Shown piece after piece: positions 16,998 through 58,267 of a stretch of 64,000 bases of DNA. The DNA is taken from IMG/VR virus record IMGVR_UViG_3300033571_009404, positions 246,115-310,114 of that record. One strand, given 5' to 3'. The position numbers were made by a program, and so were the translations under genes. This DNA comes from a virus. The notes under the pieces are model-generated. The model saw only the letters and a program-made list of their open reading frames with translations. It did no database searches and was not told where the DNA came from. The first letter of the stretch is position 1, and every line of letters starts with the position of its first letter.

Positions 16998-19076
16998 ATG
17001 CGTACTTTGAAACGTTTTCAGGTAAAGCTTTCGCTGGAGAGTGCTGACGAAGCAGAAGCAGCACAAAAGGAAGCCGAAGATAAACAATCTGAAGCTGAGA
17101 AGCAAAAGAAAGAAGCCGAAGAGGCAGCTACCAAGGCCGAAAAAGAAGGCAAAGAAGCTGCTGAAGCTGGCGCTGAAGCTGGTGAAGAACAAGCTGAGGC
17201 CGCTGAAGCAGGTGCAGAAGCAGAACAAGCCGCCGCTGAAGCGAGTGAAGCTGCAGCTGAAGCTACTGGCGAAACGACTCCTGAGGCAGGTACTGAAGCA
17301 GAAACTGCTGGTGAAACCACCGGTACTGAACCTGAAGCAGCTACTGGTACCGAAACCGATCCTCTGCCTGAACCCGAAGTCGAAGCTACTCCGGAAGCTG
17401 GTGCTGAAACCACTGGCGCTGAAGTGACCGATGCCGAAACCACGGCTGGTGAAACCGGTGCTGAAACTACCGGTGAGGCTGGTGCCGAAACTGCAGGTGA
17501 AGTAACCCCTGAAGCAACTGGTGAGGTTACTCCTGAAGCCACCGGAGAACCTGCTGGTGAACTGCCTCCGGATATCGCTCCTGAAGCTGAAGCTGGTATG
17601 GATGCTGGTGCCGCTGCAGGCGCTGAAGCAGCTGACGCTGCTGGCGCTGCTCTGGATGCCGCAGCTGCCGCTGGTGATGCAGATGCTGCCGCTGCAGCTG
17701 ATGCTGCTGCTCAAGCCGCTGGTACTGAAGTCACCGGTGAAGCTCCGCTGGAAAGCGAAGAAGCTGCACCCCAGACCGAGACCCAAGCACAGATCGAAGC
17801 ACTGAAACAGCAAGTCGCTGATATCGGCTCCAACATCGACTCGATCGAAACTGGTCTGATCGAACTGGAAAAGACTGCTGCTGAAGGCGACGTCGAACTG
17901 GACATCATCAATGAGCGTGAAGCTGCTCTGGATGAACTGGGTCAGTATAAGGAGATCGTGGAAGATTCCATCGAAGAAGGTGGTCTGACTCCTGGTGTGG
18001 CACAAGCCATCGAGATCGCTGTCGAAAGCCGTATGGAAGCTCTGGGCATGCCCAAGGCTATTCGTAAGCCGACGCCTTCCATGGAGCAGTTCACCACCCA
18101 CAGCGCACGTCTTCGCAATACCAAGGTGTCGCTGGAAGCGCTGAACATCAACATGGAATCGATCAAGAAGTCGCTGGTCGAAGCCTTCAAGCGTCTGCGT
18201 GAATGGGCTATCAAGTTCTTCCAACAGATCTTCGATGTCACCGACAAGATGGTTGCTCGTGCTGAGAAGCTGGCTTCGCTGGCTGCATCGACCAAGGGCG
18301 ATCCCAAAGAAGTGGCAATTACCGACGATCGTCTGTTCAAGGCTCTGGCTGTGGGTCAAGCAGTGCCGACCAATCTGCTGGGTGCTCTGCAACAACTGGG
18401 TTCGGTGGCTCAACCGATCATGACCGGTCAGGACGATCTGCTGGAACTGGCTCAAGTTGCAGTCAAGACGGTTTCCGGTGGTAACTTCGCTGGTCTGTCC
18501 AAGAACCTGCCGCTGCCTGCTCTGTCGGCTCCTGGTACCACTGCTGAACAAGGTTCGGATGAAGGTGATTGCCATACTCTGGTGACTCCGACTCTGATCG
18601 GTAACTTCCTGGTGTACCGCACTGGTCCCAAGACTTCGCTGCAAGGTGAAGCCGCTGTGGAAGCAATGAGCCAACTGGATGCTGGTGTGCGTGACCTGCC
18701 CAACGACATCGAAGGTGGTCAAGTCAAGCTGCTGACTCCGTCTCAAGCTGCTGAAGCTGCCAAGACGATCAGCCAACTGCTGCAAACCGTCAAGGCATAC
18801 AAGCCGGTTCAAGACAAGCTGAATGGTGTCAAGAGCCAAATGGCTAACGTGGCTTCCCGCATCAATCCGGAAGGCATGGAAGAAGCTGACGTGTCGGCCG
18901 CTAAGGCTGTTCTGGGTGGTCTGCAGAAGATCCTGGACCAACCTGCTGCTGCCGTGTCCAAGCGCGTTCTGACCGTATCCAAGGCTGTTCTGGATCTGGT
19001 GGAAGAATCGCTGAAGTCCGCTGGTGCTGGTGCTACTTCGGCAGCTCCGGCTGCTGGTGAAGCCAAGCCTGCGTAA
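16998..19076 (+). CDS. Hyperacidic inner-head-like virion protein
   Basis: A 692-residue protein. LSLES at 11-15 may be a maturation cleavage site. Residues 16-265 are almost wholly A, E, G, T, P and D, with imperfect GAET and TPEATGE repeats, and carry a large negative charge. A coiled coil and acidic linker follow. VSLEA at 377-381 then introduces an amphipathic helix (IKKSLVEAFKRLREWAIKFF) like that of the paralogues at 7011 and 8566, and a helical, strongly codon-biased C-terminal domain completes the protein. The C-terminal half places it with the inner-head proteins; the acidic half could be a removable propeptide, a DNA-mimic or a counter-charge segment in the head. A long antisense open frame covers it but is a by-product of the GC-skewed repeats. 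Confidence 0.65.
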   Translation: MRTLKRFQVKLSLESADEAEAAQKEAEDKQSEAEKQKKEAEEAATKAEKEGKEAAEAGAEAGEEQAEAAEAGAEAEQAAAEASEAAAEATGETTPEAGTEAETAGETTGTEPEAATGTETDPLPEPEVEATPEAGAETTGAEVTDAETTAGETGAETTGEAGAETAGEVTPEATGEVTPEATGEPAGELPPDIAPEAEAGMDAGAAAGAEAADAAGAALDAAAAAGDADAAAAADAAAQAAGTEVTGEAPLESEEAAPQTETQAQIEALKQQVADIGSNIDSIETGLIELEKTAAEGDVELDIINEREAALDELGQYKEIVEDSIEEGGLTPGVAQAIEIAVESRMEALGMPKAIRKPTPSMEQFTTHSARLRNTKVSLEALNINMESIKKSLVEAFKRLREWAIKFFQQIFDVTDKMVARAEKLASLAASTKGDPKEVAITDDRLFKALAVGQAVPTNLLGALQQLGSVAQPIMTGQDDLLELAQVAVKTVSGGNFAGLSKNLPLPALSAPGTTAEQGSDEGDCHTLVTPTLIGNFLVYRTGPKTSLQGEAAVEAMSQLDAGVRDLPNDIEGGQVKLLTPSQAAEAAKTISQLLQTVKAYKPVQDKLNGVKSQMANVASRINPEGMEEADVSAAKAVLGGLQKILDQPAAAVSKRVLTVSKAVLDLVEESLKSAGAGATSAAPAAGEAKPA

Positions 19077-43494: not shown

Positions 43495-43504
43495 GGAGGT
43501 CGTG

Positions 43505-44476
43505 ATGACATTACCTTCTTCTGGTAAGATGTCTTTAGCTATGATTGCGGCTGAATTGGGTCTGTCTGGTAAAGTTACGTTGGGTCAGACCCAACTCCGT
43601 AATCTTGTTGGTAAACCTTCCGGTCAGGTTAGACTGTCTGACTTCTATGGTCGTCGTCACCTTCCAGCTGGCACACTCTTGTCCACATTCTGCTCAGGTG
43701 TGAACCTGTACGGTACTTACGCGTCAGGCGATGATATCAATACCTATAACAGTTTGATTGAAGCTAACAGTACGACATGTGGTTATGTACCGTATCCCCC
43801 AGCTGGCCAACTCGTATCTACTTACTGTGATGCGAATGGATCTTACGTGGGACGTTACACCAACGGCAGCGGTGGTACTTACGATTCTGTCATTGAGTAC
43901 AACAGTACGCAGTGTAACGTGAACCCAGGTGGTTCTGTTAACGAACACTCTTGCTTCACAGCTGGTTCTTTAGTCTTGATGGCTGACATGACCGTTAAAC
44001 CTATCTATCAGATTAAGGTAGGTGAGCAGGTCATGACTGTAGATGGACCACAGCCCGTCATTGAAGTGCGTAAACCGCGTCTGGGTAGTCGCTTACTGGT
44101 TTCCTTTGATAACGGTCTTTGCAACACCTCGACTGAACATGCTATCTGGGCACGTGATAGCGATGCTAAGGAATGGTGGGCAACGCGCGATATGGAGCAG
44201 TGGAAGAAAGAAGCTGAAGATGGCACTGGTGCTGACTTTGGTGGACTCTTACCGTTTGATCTGACTGGCAAGTACGACACGTCTTTCGAGTATGCACATT
44301 TGGACGGTTGGGTTTCGCATCGAACCATCGTGCAGCCTGCTCCTGAAGGAACCATCCTGTATCACTTGATCGTAGAAGGTCCGCAGAACTACTTCGTTGA
44401 TGGCTACATCGTATCGTCGCTGGCGTCTCTGAAGAACTTCGACTGGACTACCTTTAAGTGGCAAGGTTTGAAGTAA
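43505..44476 (+). CDS. Cysteine-repeat tail protein with C-terminal Hint (hedgehog/intein) autoprocessing domain
   Basis: A 323-residue protein; the ATG at 43505 is used, preceded by AAGGAGGT. Residues 1-50 carry the phage tail motif ending LVGKPSGQVRLSDFYGR. Residues about 55-145 hold two repeats of the G-x-L-[LV]-S-T-[FY]-C ... Y ... NST-x-C type. Cys150 begins CFTAGSLVLM, the typical first block of a Hint domain, followed by the TSTEHAIW block (His212) and a C-terminal NYFVDGYIVSS block. The usual terminal His-Asn before a C-extein is missing, so cleavage or ester-type release at Cys150 is more plausible than splicing. A hairpin follows. Confidence 0.75.
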   Translation: MTLPSSGKMSLAMIAAELGLSGKVTLGQTQLRNLVGKPSGQVRLSDFYGRRHLPAGTLLSTFCSGVNLYGTYASGDDINTYNSLIEANSTTCGYVPYPPAGQLVSTYCDANGSYVGRYTNGSGGTYDSVIEYNSTQCNVNPGGSVNEHSCFTAGSLVLMADMTVKPIYQIKVGEQVMTVDGPQPVIEVRKPRLGSRLLVSFDNGLCNTSTEHAIWARDSDAKEWWATRDMEQWKKEAEDGTGADFGGLLPFDLTGKYDTSFEYAHLDGWVSHRTIVQPAPEGTILYHLIVEGPQNYFVDGYIVSSLASLKNFDWTTFKWQGLK

Positions 44477-54216: not shown

Positions 54217-54269
54217 AGCGTTACCATAAACCACTTTTAATGTGTAGTACAATCAAAAAGGATGCAATT

Positions 54270-55373
54270 ATGTCGAACGATACCGAAAACAAGATGACCA
54301 TGGAAGACATGGATGATGCCATCGAAGCCGATGATCTGATTCAAGAACAACGCCACATCCCGGACTCTGTCCTGGACGCCACGATGGGCAAGCTGAACAA
54401 GGACATCAAGTCCGCAGCACTGAACCTGAACGTGCAAGAAGCTCGCTTCCTGGTCGACCAGTACTACTCCATGCAGAAGCAGCGTATCGGTAACGGTCAA
54501 CGCGCCCTGGCCCTGTCCAAGACCAACGAACCCAACCTGGTGTTCGATCACCTGGGCAACGGCTTCCAGATGCTGGAAGACCAAGTCAAGAAGACCCTCG
54601 AAATCTTCGCGACTTCGCACTACATCGGCCGTTACATGATGTCGATCCGTGGTATCGGTCCGGTCATCGCCGCTGGTCTCATCGCCTACATCGGCGACAT
54701 CTCCGCATGCCCGACGGTCGGTCACATCTGGGCCTACGGTGGCTATGATCCCAAGCGCAAGTGGATCGGTGCCACTGCGGCTGAGCGTACTTTCAAGGAA
54801 GCTTCGGCTACCACGGAAGATCTGCGTGAAATCGCGGCCATGATCGCTGAAGAAATCGGGACTTCCCGTGAGAACTTCTTCAAGCAGGTCGAGAACGCCG
54901 GTGGTTTCACCAAGGCCAACGTCATCTCGGTCGGCTCGCGCCGTCCGTGGAACGCCAAGCTGAAGGTGTTGTTCTGGAAGATCGGTCAGTCGTTCCTGAA
55001 GCAGCCCGCAGACAAGTGCCTGTATCGTGAAATCTACGATGCGCGCAAAGCCTACGAGCATGCCAAGAACGCCAAGGGCGAGTACGCAGAAGAAGCCGCG
55101 CGCCTGCTGTCCGAGAAGAACTATGGCAAGACCACCGAGGCTTACAAGGCCATGATCCAAGGTCGTCTGTCCGATGGTCACATCCATGCTCGCGCTTGCC
55201 GTTACGCTACCAAGATGTTCCTGTCCCACATCCATCAAGTGTGGTGGGAACACGTGACCAAGACCCCGGCTCCCAAGCCGTTCGCCATCGCTCAACTGGA
55301 ACACGCGCACTTCATCGAGCCGCCTTTCTTCGCCGACGACCCCAAGGACGTCAAGAAGTACGGCAACCGCTAA
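54270..55373 (+). CDS. Helix-hairpin-helix protein resembling the C-terminal half of IS110-type transposases, without the RuvC-like domain
   Basis: A 367-residue protein; the ATG at 54270 follows AAAAAGGATG, and an in-frame ATG at 54240 is rejected. Residues 1-115 are acidic and helical. SIRGIGPVIAAGLIAYIGD (Gly128-Ile-Gly130) is a helix-hairpin-helix turn, followed by WAYGGYDP, the RRPWNAKLK segment and, near the C-terminus, ARACRYATKMFLSHIHQVWW. This is the order seen in the Transposase_20 part of IS110/IS116/IS902 transposases. The N-terminal DEDD RuvC-like catalytic domain is absent, and no insertion-sequence ends are visible, so a DNA-binding role is more likely than transposition. Codon use is strongly biased. 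The gene is directly followed by the periodic array. Confidence 0.6.
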   Translation: MSNDTENKMTMEDMDDAIEADDLIQEQRHIPDSVLDATMGKLNKDIKSAALNLNVQEARFLVDQYYSMQKQRIGNGQRALALSKTNEPNLVFDHLGNGFQMLEDQVKKTLEIFATSHYIGRYMMSIRGIGPVIAAGLIAYIGDISACPTVGHIWAYGGYDPKRKWIGATAAERTFKEASATTEDLREIAAMIAEEIGTSRENFFKQVENAGGFTKANVISVGSRRPWNAKLKVLFWKIGQSFLKQPADKCLYREIYDARKAYEHAKNAKGEYAEEAARLLSEKNYGKTTEAYKAMIQGRLSDGHIHARACRYATKMFLSHIHQVWWEHVTKTPAPKPFAIAQLEHAHFIEPPFFADDPKDVKKYGNR

Positions 55374-55382
55374 TTTAGCGGC

Positions 55383-55412
55383 ATAAGGGGCTAGGGTTTC
55401 CCCTAGCCCTAT
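55383..55412. terminator. Hairpin between the helix-hairpin-helix gene and the periodic array
   Basis: GGGCTAGGG pairs with CCCTAGCCC around TTTC, with outer CATAA and TATGG. The first hexamer of the array begins 20 bp later. Confidence 0.8.
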
Positions 55413-55431
55413 GGTATCCTGCACAATCGAT

Positions 55432-57851
55432 AGTATCATCACCGACGTGTGAGTCAGTCTTACAGTCAGTATCAAAGTTAAAGTACGAATCTACGGAAGA
55501 AACAGTATCGATGAGTGTAAATGAACCTAAATGCCAATCAGTATCATACTAGGTTAGTGAGTCCTGAGTGAGGGACAGTATCAATGTAGTAAAACGATCC
55601 ATCCAAAAGCACAGTATCAGCTAATGTGTGAGAAACATGTTTGATAAGTGTACCACAACTAACGTTTGAATCTAAATATCAAACAGTAACATATCGAATG
55701 TGTGAACCAACACTCGATTGAGTACCATAACGAATGTGTGAACCGATAGACCATACAGTATCAGAACACCCGTTTGAGTCTTTTAGTCCAACAGTAACTT
55801 AACGATAGATCGAATCAAGCTGGATAAAGTACCGTATAGCCGGGATGAATCAAGCCAATGATCAGTATCAATGTTGAGAAATGAACCCAGCCGTCAGTTA
55901 GTATCTAAAGAATTGCGTGAACCTTTATAACAGGGAGTATCAAGATTATGGAGTGAATCCAATCCGGCGATCAGTATCAAAAGAAGTAGGTGAGCCACGC
56001 CTTCAGCTAGTAACAATGTCTTTAGTCGAACCAGAGATTGTAACTGTATCAGAGTCCGAGAGTGAATCTAGGCCCATAACAGTACCATATCGGATATATG
56101 AACCGAAAACCAAATCAGTATCGAGAACAGTGAGTGAAACAGAACAAGTCGGAGTACCAAGGTGAAGTATTGAACCAACATACGCGTAGAGTATCAAGAT
56201 GCCTGTGTGAACCCCGGCCCTTGTGAGTACCTTAAGTGGTAAGTGAATCAGCAACGAAGTCAGTATCATCCCACTTGTGTGAGTCATATGCGCTGTTAGT
56301 ATCAAAATCTCCAACGAGTCATTTTTATAGTCAGTATCTATCTATCTGTGCGAGCCACTATCGCCGTCAGTAACAGCTATGCCGTGCCAATCCCAGTAAC
56401 GGACAGTATCTCATTGTAAGCGTGAACCTTAGAAGTGAGCAGTATCAGGCAAGAGTAGTGAATCGTTTCACAGGACTGTATCAATAAAAGTGTATGAACC
56501 AGTACATGTTGTCAGTACCAAGATGAAATGGTGAGCCATTGAGACGAGTAGTATCGTAGCGTTGAAGTGAAACAATTTTGGTAACAGTACCGTAAAATAC
56601 GGTTGAATCTTTGTGCCAGAGCGTATCAAGCATCCAAGTATGAACCGCTGAAACAGTCAACATCATGAGTGATTTGTGAATCTTGAGATGAGGCAGTATC
56701 AATAAATGTAAATGAACCGATGAATTTGTCAGTATCTTAATCTGAACGTGAAACATTAGAGCGTCAGTACCTTATAATGCATTTGAAACAGGCGGAATAA
56801 CGGTATCTTAGGGAACGTTTGAACCCATGATTTGAATAGTTCCGTTGTTGATCAGTGAATCAATGCGATAGTCTGTATCTTCCAATTTGAATGAACCACG
56901 CTTGACATCAGTACCATCACAAAAGGGTGAATCCAATAGCCCCAGCGTATCGTAGATGCAGCATGAATCATGTGCAAGTAGGAGTGCCATAATGACATAA
57001 TGAAACACGTACCGCAAGAGTACCTCACTATTAGATTGAGTCAGCATTGCGACAGTATCGACAGTCCCGCATGAACCGCCTCATTAGTTAGTATCGTAGA
57101 GCTAGTGTGAGTCATCACGTACATCAGTATCGTCGATTTAATACGAACCTTTTAGAGAGCAGTATCTTAGTGCATCAGTGAACCTCCCGAAGGCGATAGT
57201 ATCATTATAATCGCTTGATCCTCTTAGCCTGTCAGTACCACCACAATGGAGTGAACCAACCATCCTGTCAGTATCGTTAAAGAAGCGTGAATCGTGTTCC
57301 CTGTCAGTGCCATTATTATAGTTTGAACCTCTCTTTTCGTCAGTAACTTATCATGGGTGTGAACCAACTACGTGAACAGTACCATATGGTGAATGTGAAA
57401 CTGGCTAGCTGTCAGTAACATATCAAATGCTTGAATCAGATTTATCGATAGTATCGTTGATTTAGTTTGAACCGCGAAGATTGAAGGTGTCATTATTCAC
57501 AAGTGAACCAGATATTGCATTAGTATCATAAAGTCGAGGTGAAACAAGGTTTTAGTCCGTACCTTATGGATAGTTTGAAACTATGTGCGCGACAGTATCT
57601 TTAAGCTTAATTGAACCACGGATTCTGTCAGTATCTTGAGAAAGAGGTGAAACTTCGCTGGAAACAGTATCGTAATAACAAATTGAAACAGTGTCGGAAA
57701 GAGTACCATTTATCTTGTTTGAACCCCTAGAGCCGTCAGTTTCATTATGTTGACGTGAACCGCGAGCCTAGTTAGTAACATATCAGAGATGTGAACCAGC
57801 CAAGCAGTTAGTATCTTCAATGAAGTGTGAAACATTTTACTTGTCAGTATC
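55432..57851. repeat. Array of 135 degenerate hexamers at 18-bp pitch (36-bp alternating period)
   Basis: Reading along the + strand, hexamers occur every 18 bp without a gap from 55432 to 57851. They alternate strictly between type A (AGTAYC-like; 68 copies, of which 34 are AGTATC, 13 AGTACC, 7 AGTAAC) and type B (TGAAYC-like; 67 copies, of which 25 are TGAACC, 13 TGAATC, 11 TGAAAC). Both fit N-G-W-A-N-C, with the first and third bases exchanged between types (A.T versus T.A). The final C is kept in all 135 copies. The 12-nt segments between them are not repeated. Of 134 intervals 122 are 18 bp, seven are 19 and five are 17. Type B variants drift along the array (TGAGTC and CGA forms early, TGAAAC late). 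No plausible gene lies inside: in the + strand hexamer frame every TGA is a stop, and the +/-1 slips break the other frames. Composition is more AT-rich than in the flanking genes. Counts were made by eye. Confidence 0.95.
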
Positions 57852-57892: not shown

Positions 57893-58267
57893 ATGAACAT
57901 CATCAAAGCCATCAAGACTGTCGGTGCAGTAGCGATATTCTTTGTAGCAGCGTTCATCGCCCCTCATGAGGCTGATGCACGTACTACGGACGAGTTTACC
58001 ATTCCGGTCATTGGGAAGACCGACGATGGTAAGTACTCTCGCTTCGACCTCGAAGGAGATCTGGAAGACATCAAGTGGTTCACCAACACCACCAACTATG
58101 TCTATACCAGCGGGGATCTCCTGGTGCGTCTTCCCTTCATCAAGAAGGAAGATATCGATAAGGGTACCTACGTATGCAAATTTGTCTGCAAGGACAAAGA
58201 GGGATACATCGTGGGTCAACCTGAATCCAACCGCGTATATCTGAAAATGCGCAATAAAGCACCATAA
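57893..58267 (+). CDS. Small secreted or periplasmic protein
   Basis: A 124-residue protein starting at the ATG after AAGGAGAAGTATT; an in-frame upstream ATG at 57827 lies inside the last array unit. Residues 1-28 are a signal peptide (basic start, VGAVAIFFVAAFIA core, then ADA before RTTDE), so the mature protein is about 96 residues. The mature part looks like a small beta domain with two cysteines (VCKFVCKDKEGY). It is the first gene after the array, so any array-internal promoter would drive it. Function unknown. Confidence 0.65.
   Translation: MNIIKAIKTVGAVAIFFVAAFIAPHEADARTTDEFTIPVIGKTDDGKYSRFDLEGDLEDIKWFTNTTNYVYTSGDLLVRLPFIKKEDIDKGTYVCKFVCKDKEGYIVGQPESNRVYLKMRNKAP

What the first reader, a model, noticed from the sequence alone, without database searches (positions are those of the whole stretch)
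55432..57851. A 2.4-kb array of 135 alternating degenerate hexamers at an 18-bp pitch, with no coding content
Seen directly: AGTAYC-like and TGAAYC-like hexamers alternate without exception for 134 steps, giving 67 36-bp units plus one half unit. The hexamers are the only repeated part; the 12-nt spacers are all different. This matches no CRISPR array, iteron set, telomere or tandem satellite I know, since those repeat longer identical units. Inference: selection has kept a regular lattice of short sites, as expected for a protein that binds every 18 bp (1.7 turns) or every 36 bp, for a centromere-like partition site, a replication or packaging site, or a long RNA with regularly spaced protein sites.
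Basis: seen in the sequence. Interest (0 to 1): 0.97.

Follow-up and report, generated by a model that had tools for sequence, protein, structure and literature searches.

The report
Giant split-guide RNA (TIGR) array
The strange 2.4-kb lattice in this giant bacterial virus is an unusually long TIGR array, a row of 67 small guide-RNA units beside its partner protein TasA, from an RNA-guided DNA-targeting family first described in 2025 whose natural targets are still unknown.

Summary
In detail: 135 alternating sites (68 AGTAHC, 67 TGAAYC) at an 18-nt pitch, non-coding, far beyond chance. It is a dual-repeat TIGR array (Tandem Interspaced Guide RNA; Faure et al. [quoted passage not shown] The gene just upstream (54240-55373), which looks like an IS110 transposase, encodes a nuclease-less Nop-domain protein (TasA). 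Its nearest solved relatives by sequence and fold are TasR and TasH. Independent viral contigs show the same pairing: 48 of 80 relatives of the gene carry this lattice, and 14 of 18 records found by lattice alone encode the protein. Most likely the array is transcribed, cut into about 67 tigRNAs and guides TasA to bind DNA without cutting. New here: largest of 45 tas-adjacent arrays compared (median 17 units); arrays also lie 10-151 kb from tas; near-identical tas genes carry mostly different guides with re-paired halves; no guide targets its own genome; about 74 M. smegmatis phages carry TasA-like genes, with stem-loop TIGR units in all ten checked. The identification is firm; TasA's role and natural targets remain open.

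The parts
54240..55373 (+). tasA: solo Nop-domain TIGR-associated protein, 377 aa (automatic label: IS110-like transposase)
   Evidence: phrog_4285 and Pfam Transposase_20; profile to PDB: TasR 9mty 9e-29, TasH 3e-15, IS621 6e-6; AF2 pLDDT 79, best folds TasH and TasR; no nuclease domain found
55387..55410 (+). strong hairpin between tasA and the array (10-bp stem, UUUC loop)
   Evidence: RNAfold -24 kcal/mol for 55374-55432; no T-run follows, so not called as a terminator
55432..57851 (+). dual-repeat TIGR array: 68 edge repeats (AGTAHC core) alternating with 67 loop repeats (TGAAYC core), 67 predicted 36-nt tigRNA units
   Evidence: starts and ends on an edge-type repeat
55432..55467 (+). 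first tigRNA unit: edge core 55432-55437, spacer A, loop core 55450-55455, spacer B
57846..57851 (+). last, closing edge repeat core
57893..58267 (+). next gene: small protein with a signal-like N-terminus and its own AAGGAG ribosome-binding site; probably unrelated, but would be co-transcribed with the array
   Evidence: sequence; no PHROG or Pfam family at 0.001; no terminator-like site on the + strand between 54100 and 58666

Best explanation
It is a TIGR-TasA locus of a phiKZ-like jumbo phage. The array is transcribed from the + strand together with, or just after, tasA. The repeats act as box D/box C anchors that a symmetric TasA dimer recognises, and the transcript is cut inside the edge repeats into about 67 36-nt tigRNAs. 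Each tigRNA carries two 8-9-nt half-guides: spacer A pairs with one DNA strand and spacer B with the other at an adjacent site, so TasA is led to 16-18-bp targets. Because TasA has no nuclease domain, the complex most likely binds and bends DNA to block or silence competing mobile elements or host genes rather than cutting. Shown here: the array anatomy, the family identity of the protein, the linkage of array and protein in many phages, rapid guide turnover, and absence of self-targets. Inferred from the published family: transcription, processing, two-strand pairing. Inferred only: the biological role.
For: Anatomy equals the published description: two alternating short repeats, about 9-nt spacers, 36-nt unit, beginning and ending with an edge repeat. 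The upstream protein's nearest solved relatives by profile are TasR and TasH, and by fold also TasH and TasR ahead of IS110-type recombinases. 48 of 80 viral relatives of the protein carry a lattice of this type; every detected lattice lies on the tas strand and 45 of the 48 loci have one downstream. Of 18 records reached by the lattice pattern alone, 14 encode the protein. The same lag analysis recovers the published TasH array of Salicola phage CGphi29 as a positive control. Edge and loop repeats share R(-2), G2, A4, non-G5, C6 and A7 preferences, as expected for one symmetric dimer. The first 1000 nt of the array RNA fold less stably than all 20 shuffles (z=+2.65), as expected of guides.
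Against: No RNA data exist here. No rho-independent terminator follows the array, whereas published arrays typically end in one. No natural target was found: own genome 0 exact, 0 one-mismatch and 2 two-mismatch sites, against 0, 0.2 and 2.5 in re-paired controls; three guides scanned exactly against all IMG/VR contigs gave 0-1 hits. Box assignments rest on analogy with the published structure.
Confidence: 0.94

Rival explanations
1. The protein is an ordinary IS110-family transposase and the array is an unusual bridge RNA region.
For: Automatic annotation is IS110 transposase; IS621 and ISCro4 match weakly.
Against: No DEDD/RuvC domain is found: Pfam hits only Transposase_20, the family's conserved region begins in the Nop part and aligns to TasR from residue 122 on, and the window protein's first 60 residues are modelled with low confidence. 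TasR and TasH score far better than IS621. A bridge RNA is a single two-stem unit, not 67 repeats.
Confidence: 0.02
2. The lattice is a DNA element (centromere, packaging or replication site) bound every 18 or 36 bp by a protein.
For: Regular spacing and near-invariant short cores; Faure et al. note ParB-like genes beside some TasA loci.
Against: It keeps one orientation relative to tas in all related loci; spacers turn over while repeats stay; several such arrays can occur per genome at varying places; no ParB family hit in the tested neighbours.
Confidence: 0.03
3. TIGR-TasA is right, but the guides regulate the phage's own genes rather than other DNA.
For: TasA lacks a nuclease, so self-binding would not be lethal (inference).
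Against: 398 guides in 11 genomes give no excess of own-genome matches beyond re-paired controls, apart from one genome (G014) whose excess comes largely from mis-cut 7-nt spacers.
Confidence: 0.1

Closest known systems
TIGR-Tas, dual-repeat type with TasA (Faure et al. 2025, PMC12045711)
   Same: Alternating edge/loop repeats, about 9-nt spacers, 36-nt unit, adjacent solo Nop-domain protein, phage host.
   Different: 67 units against the reported usual 5-15; tolerates 17- and 19-nt pitches; no terminator after the array; lies in a phiKZ-like jumbo phage (jumbo phages are not mentioned in the paper's main text).
Salicola phage CGphi29 TIGR-TasH
   Same: Same 36-nt period and split guides.
   Different: HNH nuclease fused; a much shorter array; different repeat sequences.
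IS110/IS1111 transposases with bridge or seek RNA
   Same: Related RNA-binding domain.
   Different: No DEDD domain here; many short units instead of one structured RNA.
CRISPR arrays
   Same: Many distinct guide spacers between repeats.
   Different: Repeats of about 9 nt, two alternating kinds, degenerate; guides split in two halves; no adaptation genes recognised among the neighbours tested.

Membership tests
TIGR-Tas (dual-repeat) | Two distinct 8-12-nt repeats alternating, interspaced by about 9-nt spacers, 36-nt unit | tested here: met
   9-10-nt conserved blocks every 18 nt, 122 of 134 spacings exactly 18
TIGR-Tas (dual-repeat) | Array encoded next to a Nop-domain Tas protein | tested here: met
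   Gene ends 58 bp before the array; TasR 9e-29 and TasH 3e-15 by profile; top folds TasH and TasR
TIGR-Tas (dual-repeat) | Shared box C / box D motifs in edge and loop repeats | tested here: met
   Both repeats share R-2, G2, A4, H5, C6, A7 preferences; exact box assignment is by analogy
TIGR-Tas (dual-repeat) | Array starts and ends with an edge repeat | tested here: met
   68 A-type against 67 B-type, first and last are A-type; truncation of the outer repeats not clear
TIGR-Tas (dual-repeat) | Rho-independent terminator after the array (described as typical, not defining) | tested here: not met
   None on the + strand between the array and the next gene
TIGR-Tas (dual-repeat) | Processing into 36-nt tigRNAs bound by Tas | not testable with these tools
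   Needs small-RNA sequencing
TIGR-Tas (dual-repeat) | Spacer A and spacer B pair with opposite strands of one target | tested here: inconclusive
   No target found in own genome, 4.9 Mb of phage DNA, or IMG/VR for three guides
TasA subtype | Solo Nop domain, no HNH or RuvC | tested here: met
   Only Transposase_20 in Pfam; the alignment to TasR starts after its RuvC part
IS110 transposase | N-terminal DEDD/RuvC catalytic domain | tested here: not met
   No such Pfam match; residues 1-60 low-confidence in the model
CRISPR array | Long near-identical direct repeats | tested here: not met
   Tandem Repeats Finder does not report it; repeats are about 9 nt and degenerate

The most novel reading that the evidence does not exclude
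Phage TIGR-TasA loci hold a combinatorial, fast-evolving guide repertoire: recombination at edge and loop repeats re-pairs half-guides, several arrays scattered over the genome serve one TasA in trans, and the guides act on other elements rather than the phage itself.
Probability: 0.45. Interest if true: 0.82.

Novelty: new member of a known kind. Interest (0 to 1): 0.62.

Why it matters
TIGR-Tas is a young RNA-guided family; how arrays grow, what they target and what nuclease-less TasA does are named open questions in the founding paper. This locus is an extreme case (67 guides). The comparison bears on how arrays change and where they lie: guides turn over almost completely between phages whose tas genes are 96-97% identical, with half-guides re-paired; and arrays can sit 10-151 kb from tas, outside the 5-kb neighbourhood that the published mining examined. 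The stem-loop TIGR loci in mycobacteriophages that grow on Mycobacterium smegmatis mc2 155 would let the function be tested in an isolated phage with a laboratory host.

Tried and rejected
Rfam at gathering threshold: no hit. Tandem Repeats Finder misses the array. DNA and protein similarity to INPHARED phages with the window's own sequence: none. Self-targeting: 67 guides on 310 kb and 398 guides on 11 genomes, no excess over re-paired controls. Cross-targeting over 4.9 Mb of fetched phage DNA: 69 matches with at most one mismatch against 55 in controls, one of them exact. Three guides against all IMG/VR contigs with a 0-2-nt gap: 0-1 hits. Mycobacteriophage guides: Francis47, Che8 and a piece of Bxb1 gave nothing better than 3 mismatches; a padded BLAST of three guides found nothing but is too weak to count. 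Many pattern hits in viral contigs are open reading frames of 6-aa repeat proteins and were set aside. TasParB neighbour: none seen among the genes tested. IS110 transposon, duplex-DNA lattice and CRISPR readings were considered and rejected (see rivals).

Full report
OBSERVATION. A chain of alternating motifs recovered 135 sites from 55432 to 57851, 68 AGTAHC-like and 67 TGAAYC-like, spaced 18 (122), 19 (7) or 17 (5) nt. Autocorrelation peaks at 36, 72, 108, 18 and 54. One hundred dinucleotide-preserving shuffles reach at most 17.9, against 1155 for the real chain. All six frames are full of stops. The conserved block is about 9-10 nt rather than 6, which leaves 8-9-nt spacers. All 67 A spacers and 67 B spacers are distinct, and G2 and C6 of the core are kept at 133 and 135 of 135 sites. 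The window is the right end of a 310,114-bp viral record with phiKZ-type proteins.

FROM LATTICE TO SYSTEM. Scanning IMG/VR for the spaced pattern gave many loci. Many were open reading frames of proteins with 6-aa repeats and were discarded, but a set of non-coding arrays remained in very different phages. In about half of the well-scoring ones inspected, the array began directly behind a gene of a single family, the family of the window gene 54240-55373, annotated as IS110-like transposase. A literature search then led to TIGR-Tas ([quoted passage not shown]

MEMBERSHIP. A profile of ten relatives matches TasR (9mty) at 9e-29, TasH at 3e-15 and IS621 only at 6e-6. The AlphaFold2 model (mean pLDDT 79) finds TasH and TasR first, then ISCro4 and IS621. 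The alignment starts after TasR's RuvC domain and no nuclease family is found, so this is TasA. From the other side, 48 of the 80 best viral relatives of the protein have this type of lattice; all lattices lie on the tas strand and 45 of the 48 loci have one downstream. Of 18 records reached only through the lattice, 14 encode Tas. The published CGphi29 array shows the same 36-nt period in the same analysis. One typical feature is missing: no terminator follows the array, and the next gene starts about 41 bp downstream with its own ribosome-binding site.

SIZE AND PLACE. With 67 units the window array is the largest of 45 tas-adjacent arrays scored (next 63, median 17); the paper gives 5-15 as usual. 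In whole-contig scans several genomes carry arrays far from tas, all fitting the same repeat profile: 10-17 kb in G001, 16-151 kb in G002, 20-40 kb in G016, 111 kb in G003 (73 sites), 10 and 48 kb in G011 (126 and 10 sites). The published mining looked within 5 kb of tas, so such arrays in trans would have been missed.

GUIDE TURNOVER. L223 and L225 have tas genes 96.7% identical and flanks about 89-90% identical, yet share one of 24-25 units; L264 and L269 have tas 95.9% identical and share no unit. The shared single spacers are mostly joined to a different partner: L223/L225 share 6 A and 5 B spacers, nearly all re-paired. Matches are A-with-A or B-with-B, with two A-B exceptions among related pairs, both involving L241. 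Unrelated array pairs share on average 0.02 spacers. In L220-L222 the units are collinear with internal blocks replaced or inserted, not simply added at one end. This points to recombination at edge and loop repeats as a way to make new guides. The data are metagenomic, so assembly chimeras remain a caveat. Isolated mycobacteriophages do show whole units reassorted between phages.

TARGETS. With the published geometry (target = spacer A + 0-2 nt + reverse complement of spacer B; orientation derived from the reported 8-nt 3' overhangs), no excess of targets appears in the phage's own genome, in 11 TIGR phages' own genomes, or in 4.9 Mb of fetched phage DNA. Three guides scanned exactly through IMG/VR gave 0-1 hits. 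Self-regulation is therefore unlikely; foreign or host targets are neither shown nor excluded.

MECHANISM. The best reading is RNA-guided, non-cutting DNA binding by a TasA dimer carrying one of about 67 tigRNAs. The first 1000 nt of the array RNA are less structured than every shuffle (z +2.65), which fits single-stranded guides. A 10-bp hairpin separates tasA from the array. Transcription, processing and binding are inferred from the published family, not shown here.

A TESTABLE RELATIVE. Seventy-eight INPHARED records match the TasA-like gene region of mycobacteriophage Francis47, 74 of them over at least 80% of it; nearly all are Mycobacterium phages isolated on M. smegmatis. The gene matches TasR (1e-14) and TasH (1e-6) and aligns to the window family by profile. 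In the ten phages aligned, the 340-bp gap before it holds five hairpins with largely constant stems and variable 9-nt spacers between CCA-like and CG-like boxes, the published stem-loop form of TIGR. This offers a laboratory phage-host pair for the question the window cannot answer.

Noticed in passing
L463:2612-2960, L462:2752-3100, L466-L473: Fromanvirus mycobacteriophages (M. smegmatis) carry a TasA-like gene annotated 'transposase' or 'hypothetical' and, in the ten aligned, five stem-loop TIGR units upstream with largely constant stems and variable spacers.
   Followed up: partly
G001, G002, G003, G004, G011, G015, G016: TIGR arrays of the same repeat type lie 6-151 kb from the only tas gene found in the record, sometimes several per genome.
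   Followed up: partly
L223/L225/L226, L264/L269, L220-L222: Phages with nearly identical tas genes carry largely different guides; single half-guides recur with new partners.
   Followed up: yes
L464:3600-3860: Microcystis phage Mvi-JY20 has a dual-repeat TIGR array (ACGAAACCC / ATGCGAGCC, 36-nt period) behind an unannotated Tas-like gene.
   Followed up: no
L197:3805-5739: A Tas gene of 644 codons that appears to be interrupted by an intein-like (Hint) insertion before the GIGPVL motif.
   Followed up: no
window 55685-57810, A spacers: Eight A spacers lie within one mismatch of another A spacer (for example ATATCGAAT/ATAACGAAT) but no B spacer does, hinting at half-guide duplication inside this array.
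   Followed up: no
window 43502-44476: A protein with a weak Hint-domain match, below Pfam's cut-off.
   Followed up: no
window 16998-19076: phiKZ-like internal head protein with low-complexity Ala/Glu-rich tandem repeats.
   Followed up: no
L021, L083, L059, L095 and others: Very long open reading frames with an 18-nt period (hundreds of 6-aa repeats) match the same spaced pattern; they appear to be repeat proteins, not TIGR arrays.
   Followed up: no
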